NCBI GenBank assembly: GCA_024693545.1 | Contig: JAILKT010000163.1 | Span: 1 to 33,543 of the forward strand | Direction: 5' to 3' | Length of the DNA: 33,543 bases | DNA from: Lachnospiraceae bacterium | Lineage (GTDB): Bacteria > Bacillota > Clostridia > Lachnospirales > Lachnospiraceae | Notes under the pieces: model-generated | What the model was told of the DNA's origin: nothing | Database searches by the model: none | What the model saw: only the letters and a program-made list of their open reading frames with translations | Position numbers and translations under genes: made by a program | Shown here: positions 14,529 through 31,539 of the stretch, in pieces | Layout of the letters: every line of letters begins with the position of its first letter | Position numbering within the stretch: the first letter of the stretch is position 1

Positions 14529-16890
14529 GATCGGAGCGGGAAGAGGACAGGTTGAGGCTGCGGTTAAGCTGATAGACGAGGGAAACACGATCCCGTTCAT
14601 CGCCAGATACAGAAAGGAAGCCACGGGGAGCCTTGACGACGAAAAGCTCAGACTTCTTTTTGCTAAACTGACTTACCTGCGCAACCTGGAAGCACGAAAG
14701 CAGGAAGTGATCGCGCTCATTGACGAGCAGGGAAAACTCACCGATGAACTAAAAAAAGCCATACTTGCGGCAGAAAAGCTCGTTACGGTTGAGGACCTCT
14801 ACAGGCCTTATAAGCAGAAGAAAAAGACAAGGGCCGAGATGGCGAGAAAACGCGGTCTTGCACCTCTTGCCGAATTTATCATGCTCCAAAATACAGACAG
14901 GCCCGTGGAAGAGGAAGCAGCAAAATACGTAACGGGCAAGATAGAGCCCGAATCGTCTTCAAAGGAAGATGCCGTGAAGGCAGCGGAAAAAGAAGTCATC
15001 GATGTAGCGGCTGCCATTGCAGGAGCATCGGATATCATCGCCGAGGATATCTCGGACAATGCGCAGTTCCGCGACTATATAAGGCGCGTCACGGAGGACG
15101 AAGGGAAGCTCAGGTCTGAGGCAAAGGACGCTGAGGCCGAGTCCGTTTATCAGAATTATTATGCGTTTGAGGAAGAGGTCAGAAAGATCGCGGGTCACCG
15201 CGTTCTTGCCATAAACAGAGGAGAAGCCGAGAAGATACTCACGGTTTCTGTTGTTGCGCCCGAAGACAAGATACTCGGGTATCTTGAAAAGCAGCTGATC
15301 ACAAATGAAAATATATATACAACACCCGTGATAAAGGCAGCCGTCGCCGATTCATATAAGCGTCTTATAAGCCCTTCAATCGAGCGAGAGATCAGAAATT
15401 CACTCACGGATATGGCTCAGAGCGGTGCTATAGACGTGTTCGGAAAGAACCTCAGGCAGCTCCTTATGCAGCCGCCGATAGCAGGACAGACGGTCCTCGG
15501 CTGGGATCCCGCGTTCCGTACGGGATGTAAGCTTGCGATCGTCGATCCCACGGGAAAAGTACTCGACACAAAGGTAATATACCCTACGGCTCCGCATAAC
15601 AAAATCGAGGAGTCAAAAAAGATCCTCAGAGCGCTCATATCAAAATATAAAGTTACTCTTATCTCGATCGGAAACGGTACCGCTTCGAGAGAGTCCGAAC
15701 AGGTTGTTTCGGAGCTCCTCAGAGAGATCCCGGAAAAGGTTTCGTACATAATCACGAACGAAGCAGGCGCGAGTGTTTACTCTGCAAGCCCGCTCGGAAC
15801 CGAGGAATTTCCGAATTTTGATGTCGGACAGAGAAGTGCGGCTTCGATCGCGAGACGTGTGCAGGATCCTCTTTCGGAGCTTGTAAAGATAGAGCCGAAG
15901 GCCATAGGCGTTGGACAGTACCAGCATGATATGGACCAGAAAAAGCTCGCGGAAACGCTGACGGGCGTGGTTGAAGACGCCGTTAACTCCGTCGGGGTCG
16001 ATCTGAATACAGCGTCGTTCTCGCTTCTTTCTTACATATCCGGAATAAACGGGACGATCGCGAAGAACATCGTTGCATACAGAGAAAAGAACGGAAAATT
16101 CCATTCGAGAGCCGAGCTCTTGAAGGTTGCCAAGCTCGGACCCAAAGCGTTTGAGCAATGCGCGGGATTCTGCAGGATTAACGGAGGAGACGAGCCGCTT
16201 GACGCAACGGCTGTGCATCCCGAGTCATACAAGCAGGCAAGGGCACTCCTCGAAAAAATGAATTGCGGTATAAATGATGAAGAGGCGATCAAGACGTTCA
16301 GAAAGTCAGTCGGCAGTCTTGCTTCGCTGGCAGCGGAGCTTGGCTGCGGGGAGATAACACTCAGTGACATTCTTTCCGAGATTGAAAAGCCGGCTCGTGA
16401 CCCCAGAGAAGAAATGCCCAGACCCGTGCTTCGCAGTGATGTACTCGAAATGAAGGACTTAAAGCCCGGAATGAAGCTTAAAGGTACGGTCAGAAACGTT
16501 ATCGATTTCGGCGCGTTTGTCGATATCGGAGTACACGAGGACGGACTCGTTCATATTTCGCGAATGTCGGACAGATTTATAAAACATCCTCTCGAGGTCG
16601 TATCTGTCGGAGATATTGTCGAAGTGACCGTTCTTGAAGTGGATGAGAAAAAAGGCAGGATAAGCCTTACGATGATAGATGAGACAAAGCCGAAACAGGC
16701 ACCCGGTGCAACCGGAGGCAGGAATGACCGCGTGAACGCCTCGGGCGGAGACAGACGCGGGAATGGAGCGGGAAACAATCGTGGGAACGGTTCCGGAAAC
16801 GACCGTGGGAACGGTAACCGTGACCGGAGAAATGATAGGCCCGCACCTCGCGGTACAATGGCGGACCTTTTGTCAAAACTCAAGTTATGA
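14500..16890 (+). CDS. tex: Tex family RNA-binding transcription accessory protein
   Basis: A 796-residue protein overlapping the 3' end of the radical SAM gene by 29 bases, with AGGAAAGGAAG upstream. The Tex order is complete: N-terminal helix-turn-helix part (GNTIPFIARYRKEATGSLDD), YqgF-like RNase H fold (GWDPAFRTGCKLAIVDPTGK), a helix-hairpin-helix region (GVDLNTASFSLLSYISGING), and an S1 RNA-binding domain near residues 645-715 (GTVRNVIDFGAFVDIGVHED). After S1 is an extra tail of about 60 residues made of Gly, Asn, Arg and Asp repeats (RGNG units), then TMADLLSKLKL. That tail makes it longer than most Tex proteins and should increase nucleic-acid affinity. It ends overlapping the convergent ANTAR gene by six bases. 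Confidence 0.94.
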   Translation: MDIISMIADEIGAGRGQVEAAVKLIDEGNTIPFIARYRKEATGSLDDEKLRLLFAKLTYLRNLEARKQEVIALIDEQGKLTDELKKAILAAEKLVTVEDLYRPYKQKKKTRAEMARKRGLAPLAEFIMLQNTDRPVEEEAAKYVTGKIEPESSSKEDAVKAAEKEVIDVAAAIAGASDIIAEDISDNAQFRDYIRRVTEDEGKLRSEAKDAEAESVYQNYYAFEEEVRKIAGHRVLAINRGEAEKILTVSVVAPEDKILGYLEKQLITNENIYTTPVIKAAVADSYKRLISPSIEREIRNSLTDMAQSGAIDVFGKNLRQLLMQPPIAGQTVLGWDPAFRTGCKLAIVDPTGKVLDTKVIYPTAPHNKIEESKKILRALISKYKVTLISIGNGTASRESEQVVSELLREIPEKVSYIITNEAGASVYSASPLGTEEFPNFDVGQRSAASIARRVQDPLSELVKIEPKAIGVGQYQHDMDQKKLAETLTGVVEDAVNSVGVDLNTASFSLLSYISGINGTIAKNIVAYREKNGKFHSRAELLKVAKLGPKAFEQCAGFCRINGGDEPLDATAVHPESYKQARALLEKMNCGINDEEAIKTFRKSVGSLASLAAELGCGEITLSDILSEIEKPARDPREEMPRPVLRSDVLEMKDLKPGMKLKGTVRNVIDFGAFVDIGVHEDGLVHISRMSDRFIKHPLEVVSVGDIVEVTVLEVDEKKGRISLTMIDETKPKQAPGATGGRNDRVNASGGDRRGNGAGNNRGNGSGNDRGNGNRDRRNDRPAPRGTMADLLSKLKL

Positions 16891-17472
16891 ATACGTCTTT
16901 ATGATCTCGTTGGCTACCTCAAGCCTTGTCACGCAGCGGTCCATCGCCTGTTTCTCAATGTAGCGGTGGGCTGCGGGCTCATCCATGCTGAGCTCACGGA
17001 TGAGGAGCCATTTCGCACGGTTGACGGCGCGGATCTCTTCCATTTTCTCTTCAACAGAGAGGGTCTTCTTTTCCATACGGCGCATTCGTTCGCGCATACT
17101 TGCCATCCAGTCGAGTGCCATGACAAGCATAGGTCTTCCTATGGGCTTTGCGAGAACAAAAACACCGTGGGGAGCCGCTTTTTCGAATATATCGTTATAA
17201 ATCTCGTTACGTACGAGCAGAAGTGTGACGGTTCCTTTTGAGGCAAGGGTATCGATGGCAAATCTTACACCGGCATCATCGGGCAGCGGAGAATTGACGA
17301 TGACGTAGTCAAAGTTTTGCTCGGCAAAAAGTCTTCCTGCCGCACTTATGCTCGAAACGGTCCTCACGGGAGCGTATCTTACTTCAGGCAACAGAGAGTT
17401 AAGAGCCGTATTTATTTTTTCAGTGGCCGATACGATCAGCACGCTGTATATGCGTTCTTGCAAACTGCTCAT
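16885..17472 (-). CDS. ANTAR-domain RNA-binding antiterminator with degenerate receiver domain
   Basis: A 195-residue protein with AAGGAG upstream. The N-terminal 120 residues have a receiver-like fold, but the phosphoacceptor position is N60 (DYVIVNSPLPDD) and the usual acidic pair is replaced by S15-A16 in LIVSATEK. The switch Lys region (VLAKPIGRP) remains. A coiled-coil linker leads to the ANTAR domain (residues about 128-190: EEKMEEIRAVNRAKWLLIRE, then DEPAAHRYIEKQAMDR). ANTAR proteins bind hexaloop hairpins and stop transcription termination. It is the last gene of the glutamate synthase-glnA operon, and matching hairpins precede glt, glnN, glmS and guaA. The missing Asp argues for a non-phosphorylation signal. 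Confidence 0.9.
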   Translation of the reverse strand: MSSLQERIYSVLIVSATEKINTALNSLLPEVRYAPVRTVSSISAAGRLFAEQNFDYVIVNSPLPDDAGVRFAIDTLASKGTVTLLLVRNEIYNDIFEKAAPHGVFVLAKPIGRPMLVMALDWMASMRERMRRMEKKTLSVEEKMEEIRAVNRAKWLLIRELSMDEPAAHRYIEKQAMDRCVTRLEVANEIIKTYS

Positions 17473-17557
17473 AACAATCTCCTTAATAGAAGCGTTTTTA
17501 ATCGCTTCTGATTTCCGGGCAGGTACTCAGATGAAGTACCGGACTGAACATCCTTTT
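17473..17557. other. Spacer between glnA and the ANTAR gene
   Basis: Eighty-five bases on the minus-strand transcript, without a T-run terminator. It holds a hairpin AGAAGCG/CGCTTCT just before the ANTAR ribosome site and an imperfect one around CCGGTACTTC, so the two genes are probably cotranscribed, perhaps with altered stability or translation of the last gene. Confidence 0.45.
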
Positions 17558-18763
17558 TCAACCGCAGTAAATCGACAGGATTTTGTTCGGAATGTGATCC
17601 TGAACAAATTTGCTTGCGGATGCAACTTTGCATGCTTCCTCAAATGAGGAGGGGAGTTTGTCGTAGCGCGAGAGCATAACGTGGTCTGATTTATAAAGAT
17701 TAAAGTCGGCAGGCTCGGGCAGAACGATGTTGTTTTCAATCCCGTCGAGAGCTGCGTATATCATAAGCGTAAAGGCAAGGTAAGGATTTGCGAGAGGATC
17801 GGGGGAACGAAGTTCCGCTCTCTTGTATTCGCCCACTGCGGCAGGGATCCTGACGAGAGGTGAGCGGTTTTCTTTTGACCAGGTGATATATTCGGGTGCT
17901 TTGTTTGATCCGAGTCTCTGATACGAACCACGTGAAGGATTAAGGAATGCCGTCATTGGTTTAACATTCTTTAAAATACCGCCGATCATGCCGTCGAATG
18001 CCTTTTGATCTGTGGGTCTGACGGACATGTTGATATGGAAACCGTTTCCGGGCTCATGCTCAAGAGGCTTCGGGGAAAAATCCGCAAAGAAACCGTTACG
18101 AAAGGCAACGGTCTTGACAACACGCTGGAACATCATGACATGGTCCGCAGCCGTGAGAGGTGCGGAATAACGGAAATCAATCTCGTTTTGTCCGGGACCC
18201 TGCTCATGGTGAGAACTTTCGGGACGTATACCCATCTGTTCAAGAGTGAGGCAGATCTCACGCCTTACATTTTCTCCGTGATCTTCGGGAGCAATGTCCA
18301 TATAGCTTGCTTTGTCGCAGGGAATATTGGTGGGATTGCCGTCTTCGTCAAGGCGGAAAAGATAAAATTCCTGTTCCGCACCGAAAGTGAATTCGTATCC
18401 GGCCTTTGCGGCCTTATCAACAGCATCTTTTAAAAGCTGTCTTGTATCGCATTCAAAAGGAGTTCCGTCGGGACGCGTGATCTTTGAGAACATTTGAATA
18501 ACCCTGCCGTGCTCAGGCCTCCAGGGGAGAGGCATGAGCGTTTCGGGTTCGGGGTGCAAAAGAAGGTCACTCTTTGCTTCGTCACCAAAGCCTGCGACCG
18601 CAGATGCGTCGAATGCGATCCCGTACTCAAATGCGCGGGGGAGTTCATCGGGCATGATCGAGATGTTCTTCTGCTTTCCGAAGACATCACAAAATGCAAG
18701 ACGGATGAACTTAACATCTTCCTCCTGAACGTACTGTAAAACTTCTTCTTTGGAATACTTCAT
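17558..18763 (-). CDS. glnA: Glutamine synthetase I family protein (short form)
   Basis: The 401-residue protein begins seven bases after AGGAG. Catalytic elements of GSI are present: GAEQEFYLF (metal-binding Glu pair), HHEQGPGQNEIDF, GNGFHINMSV (His), and the arginine segment RLGSNKAPEYITWSKENRSP followed by VRIPA and AELRSPDPLANPYLA. It is shorter than typical GSI (about 440-470 residues), because the C-terminal helical part after LPSSFEEA is reduced. The flap position, usually GYEAP or HEAP, reads SNKAP, so the flap Glu is apparently Lys. The enzyme would make glutamine from glutamate, ammonia and ATP. Its place between glt genes and the ANTAR gene also suits a sensor role; catalytic activity is likely but not certain. 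Confidence 0.85.
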   Translation of the reverse strand: MKYSKEEVLQYVQEEDVKFIRLAFCDVFGKQKNISIMPDELPRAFEYGIAFDASAVAGFGDEAKSDLLLHPEPETLMPLPWRPEHGRVIQMFSKITRPDGTPFECDTRQLLKDAVDKAAKAGYEFTFGAEQEFYLFRLDEDGNPTNIPCDKASYMDIAPEDHGENVRREICLTLEQMGIRPESSHHEQGPGQNEIDFRYSAPLTAADHVMMFQRVVKTVAFRNGFFADFSPKPLEHEPGNGFHINMSVRPTDQKAFDGMIGGILKNVKPMTAFLNPSRGSYQRLGSNKAPEYITWSKENRSPLVRIPAAVGEYKRAELRSPDPLANPYLAFTLMIYAALDGIENNIVLPEPADFNLYKSDHVMLSRYDKLPSSFEEACKVASASKFVQDHIPNKILSIYCG

Positions 18764-18894
18764 TTCTTGACTCCTTTTTTCAGCTTTTACTGTTTAAATA
18801 TGTCGATAATCTGCCGGAAATTCAGATATGATTCTAGTGTATTATACTACATCTTCAGTCATATACAAAAACTTTGTTTTCCCGTAAGATACCC

Positions 18895-19048: not shown

Positions 19049-19768
19049 TTAGTTTGCCACGTACATCTGTCTGTACGGATTTCCCGAGTCGGGGGAAACG
19101 ACTGTGAAGGGGGCGTCAAGGACTTCATCGAGGTTAAGGTCGAATTTTTCGCAGTAATCGGGGAGGAGGCTGCGAAGCTCTTCGAGGTCCCTGGTATCGG
19201 CCTGCTTTACGTTGACCTGTGCGGGGAAGGTAACATCCTCGCATTTTGAGCGGAGGAACATCTTTCCACCGTGCATTCCCGTGCAGGGGAAGAATCCGAC
19301 AGCTTTTCCTTCGGGATCTTTAAGGTTGAGGACAACGATCCTGCCGCCGGCCTGGTACTCGCCGAGGAAGCTTCCGGCCTTGCCGCCTATGATCATCACG
19401 GGAACCTTTTCCTTATAAGCCTTCATGTGTATGCCGGCGCGATATCCGGCATTTCCTTCTATGTAGATCCTGCCGCCGCGCATTGCATAGCCTGCTGCGT
19501 CGCCGATATTGCCGTGAACGACGATGGTGCCTTCGTTCATGGTATCACCGACTGCGTCTTGTGCATTCCCAAGGACATTCACGGTGCCGCCGTTAAGGTA
19601 TGCGCCGAGCGCATTGCCGGGAATTCCCTCTATCGTGATGTCTTTACCGGACATTCCTGCGGCAATGAAACGCTGGCCGCAGCACTCTTCAACGGTAAGT
19701 GTGTCGCCGCCTTCTCTTATCGATTCATTAAGAGCTTTATGATCGAGATCTTTTGCATTTATATTCAT
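19049..19768 (-). CDS. Glutamate synthase GXGXG-domain subunit (GltB3-like)
   Basis: A 239-residue protein equal to the C-terminal right-handed beta-helix domain of the glutamate synthase large subunit, encoded separately as in archaeal-type enzymes. The Gly-rich helix turns are clear: GNALGAYLNGGTVNVLGNAQ, DAVGDTMNEGTIVVHGNIGD, AAGYAMRGGRIYIEGNAGYR. I chose the ATG at 19768 because GAGAGG lies about eight bases upstream; a GTG three codons earlier overlaps that site. The domain holds glutaminase and FMN domains together and shapes the ammonia path. It is separated from the other two glutamate synthase genes by the ferredoxin and flavoprotein genes. C-terminal 60 residues are an extra, non-helix tail. 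Confidence 0.9.
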   Translation of the reverse strand: MNINAKDLDHKALNESIREGGDTLTVEECCGQRFIAAGMSGKDITIEGIPGNALGAYLNGGTVNVLGNAQDAVGDTMNEGTIVVHGNIGDAAGYAMRGGRIYIEGNAGYRAGIHMKAYKEKVPVMIIGGKAGSFLGEYQAGGRIVVLNLKDPEGKAVGFFPCTGMHGGKMFLRSKCEDVTFPAQVNVKQADTRDLEELRSLLPDYCEKFDLNLDEVLDAPFTVVSPDSGNPYRQMYVAN

Positions 19769-19830
19769 TATTCGCACCTCTCGTAATATGCGCGTTATTA
19801 ACGCCTATGTTGTATTATGTCAGCCACCGC

Positions 19831-21141
19831 TCAAACCCGGCTCGCAAATTTCTTCTTTCGCGCGGCTGCGTCGAATCCGACAGTTGTTGCGGCCTTTTTG
19901 AGGATATCGAAATTTACGGAAGATAACGGAGTCTTTTCGCGTATCATCGATGTGTATATTCCGGCTCGTTCGTTTCGTCCGATCAGGATGTAACCTTTGA
20001 GTACATCATCCTTTGTAAAGAGACGTTTGATCGAATCTTCGGTCTTTTCTTCATATAGTTCGCCTTCATATGAGCCTGCAGTCATGGCATGGAGCCCGAA
20101 GAAACCGATCGAGTTCATGGGAATCGCGTTCTTCAGGGAAGCATCCCCACCGGCCATGTTGACACCTGCCGTGTGACCTTGCATATATGCGTTCGGGAGG
20201 ATCGCAAGGACACGCCTGGCGCCGATCGAAAGGTCGGGACCCTGTGCGCAGTCGCCCGCTGCGTAGATTTCGGGAAGAGAGGTGCTCATGTCATCGTCGA
20301 CAACGATACCGCGGTCCGTTTCGCCGCCGGCGTCTTTAACGAGACCGATGTTGGCGCGAACGCCGACCGCAAGAACGAGAACATCGAAATCAACTTCTTT
20401 GCCGCTCTTCATGAACGCTTTATTCGTTTCGAAACGCGACACGCTGTCTCCGAGAAGGAAGTTCATGCCGTTCTTTTCAAGATGACGCTGCATGAGGGCA
20501 GCACATTCGGTGTCGAGGATGCTTGAAAGAACACGGTCCGCAAGGTCGCATATCGTGACGCTCGCAACTCTGTCTATGATACCTTCCGCACACTTTAGGC
20601 CTATGAGACCGGCACCGACGATGAGAACCTTTGCTTCCGGGAAAAGGGCCTTTTCGAGAGCGAGCGAATCGTCAAGAGTCATGAAGGTATATTTCTCTTT
20701 CACGCTTTCGAGGTTTTCGAAGGGAGGAACAAAAGGCGATGAACCGGTTGCCACGCAGAGTTTTGTGTAGGGAAGTTCGGTGCCGTCGCCGAGAGTCACG
20801 GTTCCGGCTGTTGCGGAGGTACTTCCCTGCGGCGTGCCCCCGATTGCAGCGCAGCCGGCTTCAGAAGTCTTCCCTGCCGAATGTTCCGAAGGGCTGACAG
20901 ACACTGCCTTCTTACCGAGCAGGAGTGTTACACCGTTTTTGTCGTAAAAATCATCCGGGCGGTATTTCATCTTCTCGAGATCTGTCCTGCCTTCGAGATA
21001 GTAGGAGATAAGAGGCCTGCCGTAAACTTTGTGGTTTTCGCCCGAAATTACTGTGATGGGGCTTTCCTTGTCAACCGAGCGGATACCTTCGATACATCCG
21101 ACGGTCGCAACGCCGTTACCGATAATAATGTACTGTTCCAT
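19831..21141 (-). CDS. FAD/NAD(P)-dependent oxidoreductase of the glutamate synthase operon
   Basis: A 436-residue flavoprotein of the pyridine nucleotide-disulfide/NirB-like family. It has the FAD-binding start YIIIGNGVATVGCIEGIRSV, the NAD(P)-binding motif VLIVGAGLIGLKCAEG in the middle, and the second FAD motif EIYAAGDCAQGPD. It lacks a redox-active CxxC pair. Between the first FAD strands and ELPYTKLCVATGSS is a low-complexity Ala/Gly/Ser/Thr insertion (residues about 84-112) not expected in this family. It lies between the ferredoxin-like gene and the GXGXG gene, and probably passes electrons from NAD(P)H to the iron-sulfur and FMN parts of glutamate synthase in place of GltD. Confidence 0.88.
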   Translation of the reverse strand: MEQYIIIGNGVATVGCIEGIRSVDKESPITVISGENHKVYGRPLISYYLEGRTDLEKMKYRPDDFYDKNGVTLLLGKKAVSVSPSEHSAGKTSEAGCAAIGGTPQGSTSATAGTVTLGDGTELPYTKLCVATGSSPFVPPFENLESVKEKYTFMTLDDSLALEKALFPEAKVLIVGAGLIGLKCAEGIIDRVASVTICDLADRVLSSILDTECAALMQRHLEKNGMNFLLGDSVSRFETNKAFMKSGKEVDFDVLVLAVGVRANIGLVKDAGGETDRGIVVDDDMSTSLPEIYAAGDCAQGPDLSIGARRVLAILPNAYMQGHTAGVNMAGGDASLKNAIPMNSIGFFGLHAMTAGSYEGELYEEKTEDSIKRLFTKDDVLKGYILIGRNERAGIYTSMIREKTPLSSVNFDILKKAATTVGFDAAARKKKFASRV

Positions 21142-21251: not shown

Positions 21252-21728
21252 TCAGAAACAAGCGGGACTTGCCTCATCATCTGGCGCGGCCGATTTCGGA
21301 CCGCGATCCTCGTAAACAATTGCATTGTTGGGGCAGCCCGCCGCACATGCGGGAGCACCGCATGAATTTTCGAGGCAGAGCTCACATTTCTGCATCGCGC
21401 CCGACTCACCGGGAGCAAGAGCGCCGTAAGGGCAGACAAGAATGCAGGTGTAGCAGTCGACGCATTTGTTGCTGTCGATACGGACAACTCCGTCTTCTTT
21501 TGTGATCGCGCCTGCGATACAGCTCTTTACGCATATGGGGTCCTCGCAGTGTCTGCAGGAAACCGCATATGTGATCTTGTCGCCTTCTTCCACATGGATC
21601 CTCGGGTATATGGGCTTGCCCTTCAGAGCGAGGACCATATCCGAAAGACCGGAATTTGCATATGCGCAGTTAAATTCGCACAGATGGCACCCGAGGCACC
21701 ATTCTTCATTTACATAGACTCGTTTCAT
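21252..21728 (-). CDS. 4Fe-4S ferredoxin-type electron transfer protein
   Basis: A 158-residue protein with four cysteine groups: CLGCHLCEFNCAYA near the start, then CRHCEDPICVKSC, CVDCYTCILVCPYG, and CELCLENSCGAPACAAGCP. This is the HycB/DmsB-like layout able to hold up to four [4Fe-4S] clusters. It has no signal peptide, so it works in the cytoplasm. It follows the FMN subunit gene by 17 bases and precedes the flavoprotein, so it most likely wires electrons between the flavoprotein (or ferredoxin pool) and the glutamate synthase core. The last 15 residues (PKSAAPDDEASPACF) are a disordered tail. Confidence 0.9.
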   Translation of the reverse strand: MKRVYVNEEWCLGCHLCEFNCAYANSGLSDMVLALKGKPIYPRIHVEEGDKITYAVSCRHCEDPICVKSCIAGAITKEDGVVRIDSNKCVDCYTCILVCPYGALAPGESGAMQKCELCLENSCGAPACAAGCPNNAIVYEDRGPKSAAPDDEASPACF

Positions 21729-21745: not shown

Positions 21746-23251
21746 TTATTCACCTGCGTGCGAGATCCCGAGGATCTCGAGTTCTTTGTCTGTCATTCCG
21801 ACACCTCTGAGCATCAGCCTGTTACCGCGCAGTGCCTCTATGGAGTTAATGCCCATGCCGCCCATGAGCTCCTTGATCTCATGTCTCCATGCAGTCATGA
21901 GGTTTACAAGCCGCTGACTTCCGATATCGGGATTAAGTCTCTTTACAAGGTCGGGGCGCTGAGTGGCGATACCCCAGTTACATTTGCCGGTCTGGCATGT
22001 CCTGCAGAGGTGACAACCGAGAGCAAGCACCGCAGCCGTCGCGATGTAGCAGGCATCGGCACCGAGCGCCACCGCCTTTACAACGTCTGCCGCGCTTCTA
22101 ATGGAGCCGCCACAGACAAGCGAAACGTTGTTTCTTATACCTTCGTCACGCAGTCTCCTGTCAACACATGCGAGCGCAAGCTCGATCGGGATACCGACAT
22201 TGTCGCGGATCCTTGTGGGAGCTGCACCTGTGCCGCCGCGGAAACCGTCGATGGCGATTATGTCGGCACCGCTTCTCGCTATACCGCTTGCGATGGCCGC
22301 AATATTATGAACAGCGGCAACTTTGACTATAACGGGCTTTTTATATTCAGTCGCTTCTTTAAGTGAGAAGACGAGCTGCCTGAGGTCTTCGATCGAATAA
22401 ATATCGTGATGGGGAGCGGGAGAGATGGCGTCCGAACCCTCGGGGATCATACGTGTTCTTGATACGTCTCCGACGATCTTTGCTCCCGGGAGATGACCGC
22501 CGATACCGGGCTTTGCACCCTGCCCCATCTTGATCTCGATGGCGGCACCGGCTTCAAGATAGTCTTCGTGAACGCCGAAACGACCGCTCGCTACCTGCAC
22601 GATCGTGTTGGGACCGTATTTGTAGAAGTCTTCATGAAGACCGCCTTCACCCGTATTGTAGAGAATGCCGATCTCGGAGGCGGCACGTGCGAGTGATGCA
22701 TGAGCGTTATAGCTGATCGAGCCGTAGCTCATGGCCGAGAACATAACGGGCATCGAAAGCGTGATCTGGGGCGGAAGCTTGGTGATGAGCTTGCCGTCCT
22801 TGTCACGCTCGATCTTATCGGGCTTCTTGCCGAGCGAAACATGTGTTTCCATTGGCTCGCGAAGTGGATCTATGGGAGGGTTTGTTACCTGTGAAGCGTT
22901 TATGAGGATCTTGTCCCAGTAAACGGGAAGGGGCCTCGGGTTACCCATCGACGAAAGAAGGACTCCGCCGCTGCCCGCCTGTTTATAGATCTCTTTGATC
23001 GTATCATCCTGCCAGTTGGCATTTTCGCGCAGGCGGCAGTCGCTTTTCACTATCTTTAATGCCCGCGTGGGGCAGAGAGAAACGCAGCGCTGGCAGTTTA
23101 CGCATTTGCTTTCGTCGCTTATCATCATGCCGCGTTCGGGACTGTAGGAGTGAACCTCGTTGGCACATTGGCGTTCGCATACCCGGCACGCTATGCATCG
23201 GTTTTCATTTCTGACTACTTCGAATTCGGGATATATGTAATTTACAGCCAT
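21746..23251 (-). CDS. Glutamate synthase, FMN-binding catalytic subunit with N-terminal 2[4Fe-4S] domain (GltB2-like)
   Basis: A 501-residue subunit. The first 75 residues are a ferredoxin domain with CIACRVCERQC and CVNCQRCVSLCP. The rest is the (beta/alpha)8 glutamate synthase domain: MFSAMSYGSISYNAHASLAR, NTGEGGLHEDFYKYG, EIKMGQGAKPGIGGHLPG, the FMN phosphate segment IIAIDGFRGGTGAAPTRI, and the 3Fe-4S loop CHLCRTCQTGKCNWGIATQ. It makes glutamate from 2-oxoglutarate using ammonia supplied by the glutaminase subunit. Its ATG overlaps the stop of the upstream glutaminase gene (ATGA), indicating translational coupling. The fusion of ferredoxin and FMN domains is the archaeal/clostridial type. 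Confidence 0.95.
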   Translation of the reverse strand: MAVNYIYPEFEVVRNENRCIACRVCERQCANEVHSYSPERGMMISDESKCVNCQRCVSLCPTRALKIVKSDCRLRENANWQDDTIKEIYKQAGSGGVLLSSMGNPRPLPVYWDKILINASQVTNPPIDPLREPMETHVSLGKKPDKIERDKDGKLITKLPPQITLSMPVMFSAMSYGSISYNAHASLARAASEIGILYNTGEGGLHEDFYKYGPNTIVQVASGRFGVHEDYLEAGAAIEIKMGQGAKPGIGGHLPGAKIVGDVSRTRMIPEGSDAISPAPHHDIYSIEDLRQLVFSLKEATEYKKPVIVKVAAVHNIAAIASGIARSGADIIAIDGFRGGTGAAPTRIRDNVGIPIELALACVDRRLRDEGIRNNVSLVCGGSIRSAADVVKAVALGADACYIATAAVLALGCHLCRTCQTGKCNWGIATQRPDLVKRLNPDIGSQRLVNLMTAWRHEIKELMGGMGINSIEALRGNRLMLRGVGMTDKELEILGISHAGE

Positions 23252-24345
23252 CAGAATTCACCTTCTTTCACCTTTACTATCACAGGTTCTCCGCCCACGG
23301 GAGCCCATATGTTTTCCGCATTCGGTTCCATCGTACGGATGGCGGCTTCCTCGCTTGCGATATAGACCTTGTCGTCTTTTTCTCCGACAACCATCGAGCG
23401 GAGTTTGAGTCTGTCGTTGAGAGCCATCAGTCCGCCGGTAAATCCGAAAACAATAGAGAAAGGACCGGTAATAAGGAGACTCGGGAAAACGGTGCGCAGG
23501 TATGCGAGCTTTTCCCTCTTCTCCGCATCCTTCTCGTTTTCGATCGTACTCCAGAAGGGTGCGGCGATGACGCTTGCAGCCTCGGAAAGTGTAAGACCCT
23601 GAACACGTATCAGGTAGTCCATTATATAGGTGATGACTTCAGTATCCGTCTGAAGTGTGCATTTGTAGCCAAACATCTCGATGAATCGGCGGTTTGCATC
23701 ATAGGAAGAGATCTCTCCGTTGTGAACGATCGAATAATCGAGAAGAGTGAAGGGATGAGCGCCGCCCCACCAGCCGGGAGTGTTTGTCGGGTATCTGCCG
23801 TGAGCCGTCCAGCTGTAGCCCTCGTATTCTTCGAGTTTGTAGAAATGCCCGACATCCTCCGGGAAGCCTACAGCCTTGAAGGTTCCCATGTTCTTACCGC
23901 TCGAGAAGACGTAGGCACCTTTCATTTCGGTGTTGATCTTCATAACAAAGCGTGCAACGAATTCCTTCTCATCGAGCTGAAGACTTGCGAGCATTGATTT
24001 GAGGGGCGCAACAAAATAACGCCAGATTATCGGCTCATCCGTGATCTGCGGGATCTTCCTTGTGGGAATGATCTCGGAGCGGACGATCTCGAAGTACTCT
24101 TTAAGGAACGCTTCGCATCCTTTACGGGTGTCACGGGAATCGAAGAACAGGTGTAGGGCATAGAAATTCTTATATTCAGGATATATTCCGTAGCCTGCGA
24201 AACCACCGCCCAGACCGTTGCTTCGGTCGTGCATGGGCTTCATTGCTTCCGTGATCATCTCTCCGGTCATTTTCTTTCCTTCTTTTGATATGACCGCTGC
24301 GATCGCGCATCCGGAGGGAATGCGCACCTGACCTTCTTTCATCAT
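23251..24345 (-). CDS. Glutamate synthase glutaminase subunit, class II amidotransferase (GltB1-like)
   Basis: About 364 residues. The class II glutaminase features are GYSWTAHGRYPTNTPGW, HPFTLLDYSIVHNGEIS, and LQTDTEVITYIMDYL (the TDTE motif). The likely nucleophile Cys is in RIPSGCAIAAV near the N-terminus, so a short propeptide would have to be removed for an N-terminal Cys. I chose the start at 24345 because AAGGAAGGA (minus strand, 24357-24365) lies 11 bases upstream; an in-frame ATG at 24369 would put this ribosome site inside the gene and has no good site of its own. First gene of the glt operon, behind a hairpin leader. Confidence 0.88.
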   Translation of the reverse strand: MMKEGQVRIPSGCAIAAVISKEGKKMTGEMITEAMKPMHDRSNGLGGGFAGYGIYPEYKNFYALHLFFDSRDTRKGCEAFLKEYFEIVRSEIIPTRKIPQITDEPIIWRYFVAPLKSMLASLQLDEKEFVARFVMKINTEMKGAYVFSSGKNMGTFKAVGFPEDVGHFYKLEEYEGYSWTAHGRYPTNTPGWWGGAHPFTLLDYSIVHNGEISSYDANRRFIEMFGYKCTLQTDTEVITYIMDYLIRVQGLTLSEAASVIAAPFWSTIENEKDAEKREKLAYLRTVFPSLLITGPFSIVFGFTGGLMALNDRLKLRSMVVGEKDDKVYIASEEAAIRTMEPNAENIWAPVGGEPVIVKVKEGEF

Positions 24346-24446
24346 AACTATACCCGTCCTTCCTTGCATTCTTCGGTTTATTCAGAAAAAGATTTTTGAC
24401 ATTCCGCGGAGCGTTTATCTCAGCGGAAGTTTTCTCTCATTGGTAT

Positions 24447-24487
24447 AAAAAAAACGCCCATCCCGTGCATAATGCACGGAACGAACG
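24447..24487 (-). terminator. Leader terminator of the glt operon
   Basis: On the minus strand a 15-bp stem (CGTTCGTTCCGTGCA with TGCACGGGATGGGCG, some G-U pairs) and a three-base loop are followed by eight T. Its 5' arm contains the 3' arm of the AAAGGC-loop hairpin, so the two structures exclude each other. Confidence 0.88.
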
Positions 24488-24500
24488 CCTTTGCTCATTC
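24479..24500 (-). promoter_or_regulatory. ANTAR-type antiterminator hairpin of the glt operon
   Basis: Minus strand: GAATGAGC and GTTCGTTC form a continuous 8-bp stem (with G-U pairs) closing the six-base loop AAAGGC. A at loop position 1 and G at position 4 are the recognition features of ANTAR target hairpins. It begins a few bases after the predicted transcription start. Confidence 0.75.
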
Positions 24501-24507
24501 GCGTGAG

Positions 24508-24536
24508 ATTATATTCTTATCATTTCGGCTTGTCAA
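24508..24536 (-). promoter_or_regulatory. Promoter of the glt operon
   Basis: On the minus strand TTGACA (24536-24531) and TATAAT (24513-24508) with a 17-base spacer; a perfect consensus pair, preceded by GGGGTA and an A/T-tract. Confidence 0.9.
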
Positions 24537-24657: not shown

Positions 24658-24667
24658 CATAAACCAT

Positions 24668-24685
24668 AAAGGCAACGGCGTCCTT
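24668..24685 (+). promoter_or_regulatory. ANTAR-type antiterminator hairpin 1 of glnN
   Basis: AAAGGC (24668-24673) pairs with GTCCTT (24680-24685; one A-C mismatch, one G-U) around loop AACGGC, with A1 and G4. It sits at the extreme 5' end of the predicted transcript. Confidence 0.65.
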
Positions 24686-24712
24686 GAGTGATGAACTCAG
24701 AGGCGCCTTTTT
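24677..24712 (+). terminator. Leader terminator 1 of glnN
   Basis: Stem GGCGTCCTTGAGT/ACTCAGAGGCGCC with one mismatch, loop GATGA, then TTTTT. Its 5' arm overlaps the 3' arm of the preceding hexaloop hairpin. Confidence 0.78.
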
Positions 24713-24781: not shown

Positions 24782-24799
24782 AAAGGCAATGAAGTCTTT
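24782..24799 (+). promoter_or_regulatory. ANTAR-type antiterminator hairpin 2 of glnN
   Basis: AAAGGC (24782-24787) and GTCTTT (24794-24799) form a six-pair stem with one G-U around loop AATGAA (A1, G4). Confidence 0.68.
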
Positions 24800-24836
24800 T
24801 GTGTCTGAAACAAAAGACTGCGTTGCCTGTTTTTTT
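24785..24836 (+). terminator. Leader terminator 2 of glnN
   Basis: Long stem: GGCAATG pairs with CGTTGCC and GTCTTTTGT with ACAAAAGAC around a seven-base loop, followed by T G and seven T. The whole second hexaloop hairpin lies in its 5' arm, so forming one disrupts the other. Confidence 0.88.
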
Positions 24837-24889: not shown

Positions 24890-26986
24890 ATGAGTACAGT
24901 AACAGACATTTTCGGAAGTATGGTCTTTGATGACCGCGTTATGAGAGCAACTCTTTCATCTGACGTATATGCGTCGCTGCGTAAGACAATTGATGAAGGA
25001 AGCGAACTTGACATCAAAGTTGCAAATGCGGTTGCGGAAGCAATGAAGGAATGGGCGGTATCGAAGGGCGCAACCCATTATACACATTGGTTCCAGCCCC
25101 TTACGGGAATAACGGCGGAGAAGCATGACAGTTTCATAGCCCCCTCACCCGACGGGTCGGTTCTTATGGAATTTTCGGGTAAAGAACTCATTAAGGGTGA
25201 GCCTGACGCATCTTCGTTCCCGAGCGGAGGACTTCGCGCAACATTCGAGGCAAGAGGCTATACAGCATGGGATCCCACATCCTATGCATTTATTAAAGGA
25301 AAAACGCTTTGCATTCCTACGGCATTCTGTTCTTACGGCGGTCCCGCTCTTGATAAGAAGACCCCTCTTCTTCGCTCGATGGAAGTCCTCAGCAAGCAGG
25401 CAGTCAGGGTGTTAAAGCTTTTTGGAAACAAAGACGTTAAAAGAGTGTTTTCGTCGGTCGGACCGGAGCAGGAATATTTCCTTGTGACAAGGGAAATGTA
25501 TGAGAAGCGTATGGATCTCAGGTTCTCGGGAAGAACGCTCTTCGGTGCGAAGCCCCCCAAAGGACAGGAGCTTGACGATCACTACTTCGGCGTTATCAAG
25601 CCCGGCGTTGAGGCATATATGAAAGATCTTAATGAGGAACTTTGGAAACTCGGTATCCTCGCAAAGACGGAGCATAACGAGGTCGCACCCGCTCAGCACG
25701 AGCTTGCGCCCATATATTCAACCACCAATGTGGCGACCGATCACAACCAGCTTACAATGGAGATCATGCAGAAGGTTGCCGCCAGACACGGACTTGTATG
25801 CCTTCTTCACGAGAAGCCTTTCGCAGGGGTAAACGGAAGCGGCAAGCATAACAACTGGTCGATCTCCACCGATCAGGGAAAGAACCTTCTTTCACCCGGA
25901 GATACACCCGCACAGAACGCACAGTTCCTTCTTTTCCTTTGTGCGGTCATTAAGGCTGTCGATGATTATCAGGATCTTCTCCGCCTTTCGGTAGCTACGG
26001 CGGGCAACGACCACAGACTCGGAGCAAATGAGGCGCCGCCCGCTGTTATTTCGATATTCCTCGGGGATGAACTCGGTGCGATCCTTGAGGCGATCGAGAA
26101 GGATGAGCCATACAAGGGAACGGAGAAAACGGTCATGAAACTCGGCGTTGATTTCCTGCCCAAGTTCAACAGGGATACGACAGACCGTAACAGAACTTCA
26201 CCGTTTGCATTTACGGGTAACAAGTTTGAATTCAGGATGCTTGGATCGAGCAACAGCATTGCCTGCGCAAATATGATGCTTAACGCAGCGGTAGCCGAGT
26301 CTCTGAGAATTTACGCCGATAAGCTCGACGATGCAAAAGATTTTGAAGGCGCACTTCACGAGCTCATCAAAAATGAGGTAAAGGATCATAAGCGTATCAT
26401 ATTTAACGGCAACGGTTATGATGATGCCTGGATCCGCGAAGCAACCGAAAAACGCGGACTCCTCAACTACAAGACAACGGCCGATTGCATGCCTCATCTT
26501 CTTGACAAGAAAAATGTTACGATGCTTACGGGTCTCGGAGTCTTTACGAAGGAAGAGCTTGAATCTAGATGTGAGATCATGCTTGAAAATTATTGCAAGT
26601 CTATCATGATCGAGGCCGGCACAATGGTTGACATGGCACGTACCCAGATAGCACCCGCGATCGAAAATTATGCCGGAGACGTTGCAAAGAAGGCATCTCT
26701 TAAGAGAGACCTTGTTCCTTCGCTTAAGTGCGGATACGAATCCGAACTCGTGAAGAATCTCAGCACACTTCTTGACGAGATAGAAAAAGGCGTAAACGAA
26801 CTTGAAGATGCAATGGTAACGGTCGGAAATGCGGCTGATATCGTTGAGGAATCGGCAATGATCAGGGATACGATCCTTCCGAAGATGAGTGAACTCAGGC
26901 TCCCGTGTGATAAGGCGGAAACATTGACGGCGAAGAGCTACTGGCCGTTCCCGACCTATGAAGACTTATTGTTCGGTGTAAAATGA
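24890..26986 (+). CDS. glnN: Glutamine synthetase type III
   Basis: A 698-residue enzyme that makes glutamine from glutamate, ammonia and ATP, of the long GSIII type found in Bacteroidetes, cyanobacteria and Clostridia. Recognised segments include [18 protein letters not shown], the GSIII signature [31 protein letters not shown] (metal-binding Glu), [30 protein letters not shown] (His loop), and [17 protein letters not shown]. The C-terminal third is the helical GSIII extension. It has AAAGGAG before the ATG. Two successive conditional terminators lie in its leader, giving tighter control than on the other genes of the group. It is divergent from the glt operon. Confidence 0.96.
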
Positions 26987-29128: not shown

Positions 29129-29146
29129 AAAGGCAAAGGAGTCTTT
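29129..29146 (+). promoter_or_regulatory. ANTAR-type antiterminator hairpin of glmS
   Basis: AAAGGC (29129-29134) pairs with GTCTTT (29141-29146) around loop AAAGGA (A1, G4). Confidence 0.72.
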
Positions 29147-29176
29147 GAGCGTTACGCTCGAAGACTCTTTTTTTTT
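29139..29176 (+). terminator. Leader terminator of glmS
   Basis: A 13-bp stem (GAGTCTTTGAGCG with CGCTCGAAGACTC), loop TTA, and nine T. The 5' arm overlaps the 3' arm of the hexaloop hairpin. No glmS ribozyme was seen between this terminator and the gene. Confidence 0.92.
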
Positions 29177-29270: not shown

Positions 29271-31094
29271 ATGTGCGGGATAGTAGGTTTTACGGGAACC
29301 GGTGAAGCAGCGCCTGTTCTTCTTGAAGGACTTAAAAAGCTTGAGTACAGAGGATATGATTCTGCGGGAATAGCGGTAATGAACGATTCGGGGATCAATG
29401 TAAGTAAGGTTAGGGGAAGAATAGCGGGTCTGTGTGAAAAAACGGATAACGGAGCGAAAATACCGGGATCGGCAGGTATAGGACATACGAGATGGGCTAC
29501 TCACGGTGCGCCGACAGAGGAAAATGCGCATCCGCATCTCAGTAATGACGGAAAGTTTGCGATCGTTCACAACGGTATTATCGAGAATTTCAGCGCGCTG
29601 AGAGAAGAACTGCAGGAAAAGGGATATAAGTTCGAAAGCGAGACCGACACTGAAGTGATAGTGCACCTTCTTGAGATGTACTACAAGGGAAATGTGAGGG
29701 AGGCTCTCGTGAAGACGACCAACAGACTTCGCGGATCATATGCGCTTGGGGTGATATGCACGGATGAACCGGGTAAGATCTTTGCGGTACGTGAATCAAG
29801 CCCGCTTATTCTGGGGATCGGAGCACATGACAATTATTTCGCATCCGATGTTACGGCACTTGTGGCATATACGCGTAATGCCGTATATATGGAGGACGGT
29901 GAGTATGCCGAACTTTCCAACGATTCCGTAAAAGTATTTGATTGTACGGGACAGGAACTTGACAAGGAGGTCTCGCGGATCACGTGGGATGTTCAGGCGG
30001 CCGAAAAAGGCGGTTATGAGCATTTCATGCTTAAGGAGATCATGGAACAGCCCGCAGCTCTGAAGGCAACGATCGAGCCGCGGGTACGAGACGGGAAGGT
30101 TGTATTTGATGAGCTTGAGGGTCTTCCCGAAATCCTCGGCGAAATCAGGAAGATAGTGATCACGGCATGCGGGTCGGCGTATTATGCCGGATGTGCGGGA
30201 AAGTACGCACTTGAGTCACTCGGACGTATTCCGGTTGAAACAGAGCTTGCAAGCGAGCTGCGATATAACAACCCGCTTATCGATTCGCATACGCTTCTTA
30301 TCGTGATATCACAGTCCGGTGAAACGGCCGATACGATCGCGGCTATGAAAGAGAGCAAAGCACGGGGAGCACATATCCTTGCAATCGTCAATGTGGTGGG
30401 AAGTACGATCGCAAAGCTTGCCGATCATACTATATATACATGGGCCGGTCCGGAGATCGCTGTTGCAACTACAAAGGGGTATACGACACAGCTGAGTGTC
30501 CTTTACATGCTCAGTATCTGGTTCGCTGAAACGCTTATGAAGGATAAGGTCGATGTAAGGCCTTATGTCGAGATGCTCAAAAGCCTTCCGCGACTTATCC
30601 AGCAGTCGATCGATATGAATCCCAACGTCTCGCAGCTTGCCAAGAAATATCATAAGAACAGATCGCTGTTTTTTATAGGACGTAATACAGACTACGCAGT
30701 GGCCCTCGAAGGGGCTCTTAAAATGAAGGAAATCTCGTACCTTCACGCAGAAAGCTATGCGGCGGGAGAACTCAAGCACGGAACGATCGCGCTGATAGAG
30801 GAGCATCAGCCCGTTATCGCAGCTTGCTGCAATGAGAGGCTTATGGAAAAAACACTCAGCAACATCATCGAGGTTAAGGCCAGGGGCGCACGAGTCCTGG
30901 CTATTACGATCGCCGGAAACAAGAATATAGTTTCGGTTGCGGATGACCTTCTCTTCATACCGCCGATAGATGAACTTTTCAGCGCTGCAGTCGAGATCGT
31001 ACCGCTCCAGCTTCTTGCATATTACGTTGCAAAAGAAAACGGCTGCGATATCGATAAACCGAAGAATCTTGCAAAATCCGTAACGGTTGAGTGA
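29271..31094 (+). CDS. glmS: Glutamine--fructose-6-phosphate aminotransferase (isomerizing)
   Basis: A complete 607-residue GlmS making glucosamine-6-phosphate for cell-wall synthesis with glutamine as nitrogen donor. The glutaminase domain has nucleophile C2 (MCGIVGFTG), LEYRGYDSAGIAV, HTRWATHGAPTEENAHPH, HNGIIENF and ETDTEVIVHLL. Two SIS sugar-phosphate isomerase domains follow, with TACGSAYYAG, VISQSGETADTIAAM and, near the end, the family terminus PKNLAKSVTVE. AAAGGAGAG precedes the ATG. Its leader carries the same conditional terminator as the nitrogen genes, so its expression probably follows glutamine status. Confidence 0.97.
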   Translation: MCGIVGFTGTGEAAPVLLEGLKKLEYRGYDSAGIAVMNDSGINVSKVRGRIAGLCEKTDNGAKIPGSAGIGHTRWATHGAPTEENAHPHLSNDGKFAIVHNGIIENFSALREELQEKGYKFESETDTEVIVHLLEMYYKGNVREALVKTTNRLRGSYALGVICTDEPGKIFAVRESSPLILGIGAHDNYFASDVTALVAYTRNAVYMEDGEYAELSNDSVKVFDCTGQELDKEVSRITWDVQAAEKGGYEHFMLKEIMEQPAALKATIEPRVRDGKVVFDELEGLPEILGEIRKIVITACGSAYYAGCAGKYALESLGRIPVETELASELRYNNPLIDSHTLLIVISQSGETADTIAAMKESKARGAHILAIVNVVGSTIAKLADHTIYTWAGPEIAVATTKGYTTQLSVLYMLSIWFAETLMKDKVDVRPYVEMLKSLPRLIQQSIDMNPNVSQLAKKYHKNRSLFFIGRNTDYAVALEGALKMKEISYLHAESYAAGELKHGTIALIEEHQPVIAACCNERLMEKTLSNIIEVKARGARVLAITIAGNKNIVSVADDLLFIPPIDELFSAAVEIVPLQLLAYYVAKENGCDIDKPKNLAKSVTVE

Positions 31095-31371: not shown

Positions 31372-31439
31372 ATGGACCCCAACCCCCGTCCCTCAGGGTT
31401 CACCAATGACACCCAACCCCCGTCCCCAAGGTGTCATAC
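31372..31439. repeat. Modular GGGACGGGGG repeats before guaA (right cluster, inverted)
   Basis: Two adjacent 34-bp units (31372-31405 and 31406-31439). Both carry the core in reverse orientation (CAACCCCCGTCCC). The first has arm words TGGACCC and GGGTTCA, the second the perfect pair TGACACC and GGTGTCA. Confidence 0.87.
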
Positions 31440-31452
31440 CGCATTTCGGGTA

Positions 31453-31481: not shown

Positions 31482-31492
31482 TTGTTACGTGA

Positions 31493-31510
31493 AAAGGCAA
31501 AGGAGTCTTT
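31493..31510 (+). promoter_or_regulatory. ANTAR-type antiterminator hairpin of guaA
   Basis: AAAGGC (31493-31498) pairs with GTCTTT (31505-31510) around loop AAAGGA (A1, G4); identical to the glmS hairpin. Confidence 0.72.
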
Positions 31511-31539
31511 GGACGTGGGTCCGGAGACTCTTTTTTTTT
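31503..31539 (+). terminator. Leader terminator of guaA
   Basis: GAGTCTTTGGAC and GTCCGGAGACTC form a 12-bp stem with a four-base loop, then nine T. Overlaps the 3' arm of the hexaloop hairpin. Confidence 0.92.

What the first reader, a model, noticed from the sequence alone, without database searches (positions are those of the whole stretch)
16885..31539. A glutamine regulon read from RNA: the same AnnGnn hexaloop hairpin before glt, glnN, glmS and guaA-pyrG, with its ANTAR reader encoded in the same window
Seen: five hairpins with a six-base loop having A at position 1 and G at position 4 (AAAGGC, AACGGC, AATGAA, AAAGGA, AAAGGA). Four of the stems share the AAAGGC/GTCTTT pattern. Each lies within about 10-25 bases of a -10 box or in the same leader, and overlaps the 5' arm of an intrinsic terminator. 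Known: ANTAR proteins (EutV, NasR, AmiR type) bind such hexaloops and prevent termination. Inference: the ANTAR protein at 16885-17472 lets transcription through when glutamine is scarce. The controlled set joins glutamine makers (GS, GOGAT) with users (GlmS, GuaA, PyrG). Extension to users is what makes this notable.
Basis: partly seen in the sequence, partly recalled or inferred. Interest (0 to 1): 0.75.

Follow-up and report, generated by a model that had tools for sequence, protein, structure and literature searches.

The report
Glutamine regulon with single-hexaloop RNA leaders
In this Lachnospiraceae genome, genes that make glutamine and genes that spend it begin with the same tiny RNA hairpin next to a transcription stop signal, probably read by one RNA-binding protein encoded beside a glutamine-synthetase look-alike that may be the sensor.

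Summary
The five hairpins are real: A1/G4 hexaloops that follow a promoter, or sit in the same leader, and overlap an intrinsic terminator. In 80 loci around orthologues of the window's ANTAR protein plus the window, 74 of 131 hexaloop-terminator composites are A/G; each other letter pair gives 2-8. A promoter lies just upstream in 54 of these 74 and 0 of the 57 others. A covariance model finds the element across genus and family: 91 of 91 genus hits and 61 of 67 family hits (E<=1e-3) precede glutamine/ammonium genes (glnN, glnA, glt, gdhA, amtB-glnK, gltBD) or glutamine amidotransferases (glmS, guaA, pyrG, carA, purF, asnB). Hits occur in 54 of 175 ANTAR-bearing genomes and 0 of 25 without. 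"Makers and users" holds and is wider than claimed. Two departures from known ANTAR systems: one hexaloop at the transcript's predicted 5' end, not two; and an Asp-less pseudo-receiver (Asn in 81 of 81), encoded directly after a glutamine-synthetase-like protein whose flap Glu is Lys in 82 of 85. RNA binding, the signal and the direction of control are inferred, not shown.

The parts
16885..17472 (-). ANTAR protein with Asp-less pseudo-receiver (proposed reader of the hexaloops)
   Evidence: PF03861 2.5e-14; Response_reg 4.4e-5, below its cut-off; Asn60 in 81 of 81 orthologues
17558..18763 (-). short glutamine-synthetase-like protein (401 aa), flap Glu replaced by Lys; proposed sensor partner
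   Evidence: Gln-synt_C 5.9e-84; 334.5 bits vs TIGR00653 cut-off 429.15; Lys in 82 of 85; directly upstream of ANTAR in 72 of 72 loci with room
19049..19777 (-). GXGXG-domain subunit of split glutamate synthase
   Evidence: PF01493 4.6e-29
19831..21141 (-). pyridine nucleotide-disulphide oxidoreductase of the glt gene set
   Evidence: PF07992 1.7e-52
21252..21728 (-). 4Fe-4S ferredoxin-like subunit of the glt gene set
   Evidence: PF13247 2.9e-13
21746..23251 (-). glutamate synthase FMN-domain subunit
   Evidence: PF01645 3.9e-139
23251..24369 (-). glutamate synthase class II glutamine amidotransferase subunit
   Evidence: PF00310 1.8e-11
24479..24500 (-). hexaloop hairpin GAATGAGC-AAAGGC-GTTCGTTC of the glt leader
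   Evidence: window, minus, rc position 9052; R1 59.4 bits, 6.9e-9
24445..24498 (-). intrinsic terminator overlapping the glt hexaloop
   Evidence: MFE -29.5 kcal/mol
24508..24536 (-). glt promoter: -35 TTGACA (24531-24536), -10 TATAAT (24508-24513)
   Evidence: sequence; inside R1 hit 24479-24538
24668..24685 (+). first glnN hexaloop AAAGGC-AACGGC-GTCCTT (one A.C mismatch)
   Evidence: R1 hit 24627-24687, 9.5e-5
24677..24707 (+). first glnN terminator
   Evidence: MFE -18.7 kcal/mol
24782..24799 (+). second glnN hexaloop AAAGGC-AATGAA-GTCTTT
24784..24828 (+). second glnN terminator
   Evidence: MFE -25.3 kcal/mol
24890..26986 (+). glnN, glutamine synthetase type III
   Evidence: PF12437 3.2e-80
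29129..29146 (+). glmS hexaloop AAAGGC-AAAGGA-GTCTTT
   Evidence: R1 57.7 bits, 1.5e-8
29135..29171 (+). glmS leader terminator
   Evidence: MFE -24.3 kcal/mol
29271..31094 (+). glmS
   Evidence: TIGR01135 4.2e-239
31493..31510 (+). guaA hexaloop AAAGGC-AAAGGA-GTCTTT
   Evidence: R1 53.8 bits, 9.5e-8
31499..31538 (+). guaA leader terminator
   Evidence: MFE -24.6 kcal/mol
31580..33112 (+). guaA
   Evidence: NF000848 6.5e-222
33181..33543 (+). pyrG start, cut by window end
   Evidence: reading frame; a full-length homologue elsewhere matches TIGR00337

Best explanation
A transcription-attenuation regulon for the glutamine economy. Transcripts start at or just before a short A1/G4 hexaloop hairpin whose 3' arm is also part of the 5' arm of an intrinsic terminator. 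By default the terminator forms and transcription stops in the leader. When active, the ANTAR protein (last gene of the glt-glnA gene set) holds the hexaloop, the terminator cannot form, and transcription enters glnN, the glt genes, gdhA and amtB-glnK, and also the glutamine-spending enzymes GlmS and GuaA here (PyrG, CarA, PurF, AsnB in relatives). Shown here: the anatomy, variation of the stem around a fixed loop, the single hexaloop, regulon membership, co-occurrence with the ANTAR gene, conserved synteny. Inferred: RNA binding, antitermination, read-through at low glutamine, self-control of the ANTAR gene, and signal input through a partner protein (most likely the adjacent GS-like protein) rather than phosphorylation.
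For: Loop letters: 74 A/G of 131 hexaloop-terminator composites near ANTAR orthologues and in the window, others 2-8 each; position 2, not selected there, is A in 73 of the 74. A promoter (>=10 of 12 consensus bases, -10 end 12-19 nt before the loop) lies upstream of 54 of these 74 and of 0 of the 57 composites with other loops. Stem: 38 two-sided changes vs 12.2 shuffled and 0-3 in slid controls. Terminator and hexaloop are mutually exclusive folds in the window leaders. Regulon: 91 of 91 genus hits and 61 of 67 family hits at E<=1e-3 precede glutamine/ammonium or glutamine-amidotransferase genes; asnB, carA, purF, gltD and large-subunit gltB (12, 4, 4, 8 and 4 hits = 32 of 158) were not found before any site that fed the model. 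Representative gene names checked. Co-occurrence: 54/175 vs 0/25; 11 of 11 genomes with ANTAR >=50% identical. GS-like gene directly upstream of ANTAR in 72 of 72. Precedent: NitR reported to induce GS/GOGAT genes on N limitation (PMC6316151, passage).
Against: No binding or expression data. 121 of 175 ANTAR-bearing family genomes have no hit at E<=1e-3, including 11 of 31 with a near-full-length orthologue. 30 other ANTAR loci (L217-L246, +/-1.5 kb) hold no A/G composite. Three of 25 ANTAR-less genomes have weaker hits (E 0.0012-0.0054); the one fetched (G146) shows no A1/G4 site. The sites aligned had mostly been chosen for a stem of >=4 pairs, so high pairing is partly by selection, and two of its five measures do not exceed shuffles (pairs with a change on both sides 58/500, pair types 282/500). 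The model was trained mostly on leaders near ANTAR orthologues of >=60% identity, which favours hits in such genomes. EutV needs both hexaloops for antitermination (PMC3369931, PMC8934654). The exact AAAGGC/GTCTTT stem is not enriched family-wide. Six of 67 family hits do not fit: 2 before purC-purA, 1 AbrB-like, 3 unassigned. An A1/G4 hexaloop with stem >=4 was recognised in 138 of 158 hits and a terminator called in 107. In the window a 285-bp gap with repeats and a promoter-like sequence lies before glnA (by eye), so the ANTAR gene may not depend on the glt leader.
Confidence: 0.8

Rival explanations
1. The hairpin is a DNA operator for a repressor or roadblock protein placed just after the promoter, and the terminator is incidental.
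For: It sits close behind the -10 box and is nearly palindromic in some leaders.
Against: The second pair is G.U in 71 of 72 sites, pairs 3-5 exchange A-U, G-C and U-A, and the conserved loop is asymmetric, which fits RNA rather than a DNA dyad; the 3' arm doubles as a terminator arm; second copies sit inside leaders with their own terminators.
Confidence: 0.06
2. A ligand-binding RNA (glutamine or nucleotide riboswitch) or leader-peptide attenuator needing no protein.
For: Attenuation architecture; AAAGGAG in the glmS and guaA hairpins looks like a ribosome-binding site.
Against: The conserved part is an 18-22 nt hairpin; no Rfam match in the window except a TPP riboswitch elsewhere; loop position 6 is C in 51 of 72 sites, which breaks the Shine-Dalgarno look; presence tracks the ANTAR gene.
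Confidence: 0.06
3. ANTAR-type leaders, but the reader is controlled by PII/GlnK, by a kinase or by something unknown rather than by the adjacent GS-like protein.
For: amtB-glnK fusions are themselves targets; ANTAR regulators have diverse inputs (PMC3369936, passages).
Against: The Asp-less receiver argues against a kinase; the GS-like gene adjoins ANTAR in 72 of 72 loci.
Confidence: 0.35

Closest known systems
ANTAR dual-hexaloop antiterminators (EutV, NasR, AmiR targets; Ramesh 2012, PMC3369931)
   Same: Hexaloop with A1 and G4, overlap of the loop stem with an intrinsic terminator, multi-operon nitrogen regulons including glutamate and glutamine synthases
   Different: One hexaloop at the predicted transcript 5' end instead of P1 plus P2; targets include glutamine amidotransferases of several pathways
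NitR of Clostridium saccharobutylicum (Stutz 2007, not read; described in a passage of PMC6316151)
   Same: ANTAR protein reported to induce GS/GOGAT genes on nitrogen limitation by antitermination
   Different: Extension to glmS, guaA, pyrG, carA, purF, asnB; GS-like neighbour with altered flap; whether NitR targets have one or two hexaloops was not checked
AmiR-AmiC of Pseudomonas aeruginosa (passages of PMC3369936 and PMC8934654)
   Same: ANTAR protein with a pseudo-receiver, controlled by a partner protein
   Different: The partner there is amide-binding AmiC; here the neighbour is a GS homologue and control is not shown
B. subtilis GS-TnrA control (passage of PMC6316151; the similar GlnR case is recalled)
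   Same: Glutamine synthetase holds a nitrogen regulator when nitrogen is plentiful
   Different: There a working GS and a DNA-binding regulator; here a probable non-catalytic GS homologue and an RNA-binding regulator (inference)

Membership tests
ANTAR dual-hexaloop target RNA | hexaloop with A at position 1 and G at position 4 | tested here: met
   74 A/G of 131 composites, other letter pairs 2-8 each
ANTAR dual-hexaloop target RNA | hexaloop stem overlaps an intrinsic terminator | tested here: met
   five window leaders; terminator called in 107 of 158 model hits
ANTAR dual-hexaloop target RNA | second hexaloop (P1) a short linker upstream | tested here: not met
   C-G-closed A/G hexaloop upstream in 1 of 144 promoter sites and 0 of 42 others, controls mean 1.3 and 0.2; with any closing pair 15 of 144 and 1 of 42, controls mean 14.7 and 4.1; downstream 3 of 186, controls mean 1.9
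ANTAR dual-hexaloop target RNA | bound by an ANTAR protein with read-through | not testable with these tools
   needs gel shift and transcription assays; only co-occurrence tested
ANTAR regulator proteins | C-terminal ANTAR domain | tested here: met
   PF03861 2.5e-14; Rv1626 1s8n 1.5e-11, AmiR 1qo0 7.3e-6, EutV 6wsh 0.001 (protein names of entries partly recalled)
ANTAR response regulators of EutV type | phosphorylatable Asp in the receiver | tested here: not met
   Asn in 81 of 81; in 30 loci spanning 29-100% identity, Asn in 27, Asp, Tyr and Leu in one each
AmiR-type pseudo-receiver ANTAR proteins | receiver without acceptor Asp, controlled by a partner | tested here: inconclusive
   Asp-less receiver found; partner control not testable here
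Type I glutamine synthetase (adjacent gene) | metal-ligand Glu and His residues | tested here: met
   Glu in 85, 85, 85 and 82 of 85, His in 83, last Glu in 81 with Gln in 4; residue roles and numbering recalled
Type I glutamine synthetase (adjacent gene) | catalytic flap Glu (PGYEAP motif) | tested here: not met
   Lys in 82 of 85 short-type proteins; aligned to the Glu of a solved GS; role of the residue recalled
Type I glutamine synthetase (adjacent gene) | curated score of TIGR00653 | tested here: not met
   334.5 vs cut-off 429.15

The most novel reading that the evidence does not exclude
A glutamine-synthetase pseudoenzyme is the cell's glutamine sensor: it binds glutamine but cannot make it, and holds or releases an Asp-less ANTAR protein that controls, through single hexaloops at the very start of transcripts, nearly every gene that makes or spends glutamine. 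This would be a one-protein, RNA-level control of the whole glutamine budget.
Probability: 0.35. Interest if true: 0.82.

Novelty: new variant of a known kind. Interest (0 to 1): 0.66.

Why it matters
Walshe 2022 (PMC8934654) redefined the minimal ANTAR binding motif as one hexaloop, although EutV needs two for antitermination, and asked how far single-hexaloop sites exist in genomes. Here are well over a hundred natural terminator-coupled single-hexaloop sites (186 non-redundant, a few of them chance), so the question becomes directly testable. The regulon also shows a logic that I did not find in the papers searched: amidotransferases of amino-sugar, purine, pyrimidine and asparagine synthesis under the same switch as glutamine synthesis. 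It offers a concrete sensor candidate for nitrogen control in a major gut and rumen family.

Tried and rejected
Shine-Dalgarno or leader-peptide reading: rejected, most loops lack AGGAG. Rfam: only the TPP riboswitch. P1 search upstream and downstream: no excess. ANTAR-profile top loci L217-L246: no A/G composites, so much of the family uses something else or sites outside the stretch. Literature: the listings show no paper whose title or abstract start names an ANTAR regulon of glutamine amidotransferases or a GS pseudoenzyme partner; most listed papers were not opened, 'pseudoenzyme' itself was not a search term, the library is partial, and the supplementary tables of Ramesh 2012 could not be read, so prior listing is possible. 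No structure prediction was run.

Rows dropped before counts: L125 (chance site) and near-duplicates (98 rows to 74), then L153 and the L076+ site (72); 16 of the 55 promoter-bearing sequences were left out of alignment A1 to reduce redundancy. Not fetched: family hits above E 1e-3 (except G146 and any inside fetched stretches) and genus hits above about 0.005 (except two). The downstream-gene tally uses only hits at E<=1e-3 and the first gene starting within 600 nt at >=35% identity to a reference. The promoter search looks only at -10 boxes ending 12-19 nt before the loop, and loci fetched by R1 are enriched for promoters because R1 contains one; one search gives the figure free of that selection.
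Full report
What is there. The window (contig C145 of G000, 33,543 bases; the nearest named ANTAR relatives are Lachnospiraceae) holds on the minus strand a split glutamate synthase gene set (GATase, FMN domain, ferredoxin-like, oxidoreductase, GXGXG), a short glutamine-synthetase-like gene and the ANTAR gene, and on the plus strand glnN, a LacI-GGDEF gene, glmS, guaA and the start of pyrG. Each lies just after a TTGACA-17-TATAAT-like promoter, or in the same leader, and shares bases with an intrinsic terminator. Folding gives the terminator as the minimum for each of the five window leaders and the hexaloop as the first structure in the nascent RNA for the four with an unbroken stem.

More than chance. 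Of 131 composites, 74 had A1 and G4; every other letter pair had 2 to 8. Loop position 2, which was not selected, is A in 73 of the 74. A promoter of at least 10 of 12 consensus bases lies close upstream of 54 of the 74 and of 0 of the 57 other composites. In 72 non-redundant sites (these with genus sites found by pattern) the second pair is G.U in 71, and pairs 3-5 exchange A-U, G-C and U-A. On 39 aligned sequences 97.9% of cells pair, with 38 two-sided changes against 12.2 in shuffles and 0 to 3 in slid controls; two of five measures do not exceed shuffles, and most sites had been chosen for a stem, so the pairing itself is partly by selection. What selection does not explain is that one loop goes with many stems, for instance GAATGAGC, AAAGGC, TGAAGC and ATTTCGC on the 5' side.

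One hexaloop, not two. The described ANTAR target is a pair of hexaloops, in E. faecalis eut leaders with a linker of 5-12 nt, both needed by EutV (PMC3369931, passages, section 7 and part 1 of section 10 read). In the set found without using promoters, 45 of 60 non-redundant sites have one at 14-17 nt before the loop. A normal start would leave about 0-7 nt of RNA before the stem. A C-G-closed second A/G hexaloop upstream occurs in 1 of 144 and, in sites without an adjacent promoter, 0 of 42; with any closing pair it is 15 and 1, no more than for other loop letters; downstream it is 3 of 186. Several leaders carry two complete hexaloop-terminator units in series, which is a different arrangement. 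Walshe 2022 (PMC8934654; abstract, sections 24 and 26 read) concluded that a EutV dimer binds one hexaloop at a time, redefined the minimal motif as a single hexaloop and called for searches for such sites.

The regulon. A covariance model of promoter plus hairpin (R1) gave, at E<=1e-3, 91 hits in 23 of 24 genus genomes and 67 hits in 52 family genomes besides G000 and G121 (200 genomes searched). First downstream genes in the genus: gdhA 14, glnN 13, amtB-glnK 13, gltD 8, glmS 7, asnB 7, guaA 6, glnA 6, glt GATase 5, pyrG 5, purF 3, carA 3, gltB 1: 91 of 91. In the family: glnN 24, amtB-glnK 8, glnA 8, glt GATase 7, asnB 5, gltB 3, pyrG 3, gdhA 1, purF 1, carA 1: 61 of 67; the rest are purC followed by purA (2), an AbrB-like gene (1) and three unassigned. 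One representative each of glmS, amt, asnB, pyrG, gltD, carA, purF and purC was checked against NCBIfam, and of gdhA, amtB-glnK and gltB against Pfam; members were assigned by BLAST similarity. The 39 model sequences came from leaders of glt, glnN, gdhA, glmS, guaA, one amtB, one pyrG and one unassigned gene; asnB, carA, purF, gltD and large-subunit gltB were new classes (32 of 158 hits). GlmS, GuaA, PyrG, CarA, PurF, AsnB and GltB are glutamine amidotransferases (established knowledge). In G000 itself the sites are glt, glnN (two), glmS, guaA, gdhA and amtB-glnK (two); in a genome 84% complete others may be missing.

Link to the ANTAR protein. PF03861 is present in 175 of 200 family genomes, mostly once. 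R1 hits at E<=1e-3 occur in 54 of these and 0 of 25 without (Fisher p=4e-4). At E<=0.01 it is 84 of 175 and 3 of 25. Hits are commoner where the ANTAR protein is a near-full-length orthologue (20 of 31 vs 34 of 144, p=2e-5) and present in all 11 genomes with >=50% identity, own genus included. Shared ancestry is not removed from these numbers, and the model was trained mostly on leaders near such orthologues. Against: 121 of 175 ANTAR-bearing genomes, and 11 of the 31, show no hit at E<=1e-3, and 30 other ANTAR loci have no such composite within 1.5 kb.

The receiver domain has lost the phosphorylation site: Asn60 in 81 of 81, and Ser15 in 81 of 81 where a solved receiver has Asp. In 30 loci spanning 29-100% identity Asn60 holds in 27. 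His169 and Met177, which the alignment places at the EutV Tyr164 and Met172 described in PMC8934654, are invariant (81 of 81 and 30 of 30). So the input is probably a partner, as for AmiR. In 72 of 72 ANTAR loci with room upstream the neighbour is a GS-like gene, most often of 403 codons (68 within 400 bp, 4 with overlapping called starts). In 85 proteins of this type (>=48% identical, from the fetched loci) the metal ligands are kept, but the flap Glu of PGYEAP is Lys in 82 and the flap is one residue shorter; the window's protein scores under the GlnA cut-off. Sixteen more distant GS-like proteins, most from loci around other ANTAR genes and cut by the locus end, have Glu in 11 and N, D or H in the rest. 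The cell has another GS, GlnN. I infer that the GS-like protein senses rather than makes glutamine.

Mechanism. Default: termination. Low glutamine (inferred from NitR of C. saccharobutylicum, reported in PMC6316151, and from GS, GDH and Amt being targets): active ANTAR protein holds the hexaloop, terminator excluded, transcription proceeds. The ANTAR gene lies at the end of a controlled gene set, so the circuit may feed on itself; in the window a 285-bp gap with repeats and a promoter-like sequence before glnA leaves that open, while several genus members have the element directly before glnA-ANTAR. Raising amidotransferases together with glutamine supply would keep flux up when their common substrate is low; this reason is inference.

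Novelty. ANTAR-type leaders before glutamate and glutamine synthase, ammonium transporter and PII genes are known (PMC3369931 and PMC3369936, passages). As far as the listings of nine searches of a partial library show, new here are a large set of terminator-coupled single-hexaloop leaders, the amidotransferase part of the regulon, and the GS-like neighbour with a changed flap. I file it as a new variant of a known kind: the dual-hexaloop feature was tested and not met, yet it very likely works like an ANTAR system.

Noticed in passing
18906-18983, 31171-31224, 31407-31426: A GGGACGGGGGTTNGGTGTCA repeat, often in clusters and inverted pairs, lies between the GXGXG gene and glnA and between glmS and guaA; 69 matches in the genome at up to 2 mismatches, 0 for the backward control.
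   Followed up: partly
8941-13572: NHLP-type bacteriocin export ABC transporter pair (the second just under its family cut-off) followed by a 70-aa peptide with a ...DEVAGG leader-like end; no NCBIfam match for the peptide.
   Followed up: partly
7271-7373: TPP riboswitch, 62.4 bits, the only Rfam match in the window at gathering thresholds.
   Followed up: no
L073 1095, L074 1095, L075 1095, L097 1093: A hexaloop-terminator with another stem type (TGAAGC/GTTTCA) stands before an unassigned gene, a few kb upstream of the glt GATase.
   Followed up: no
L219, L227, L228: GS-like proteins next to other ANTAR genes in the family show further changes at catalytic positions (for example HHE to YHS, QHE to QHQ), as if GS pseudoenzymes arose more than once.
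   Followed up: no
L310 10147, L317 212, L094 minus 17027: The element also stands before purC followed by purA-like genes, which by general knowledge use aspartate, not glutamine.
   Followed up: partly
18764-18890 minus strand: The window's glnA-ANTAR pair has a promoter-like sequence of its own without an evident hexaloop (by eye), while several genus members (for example G107 and G121) have the element before glnA.
   Followed up: no
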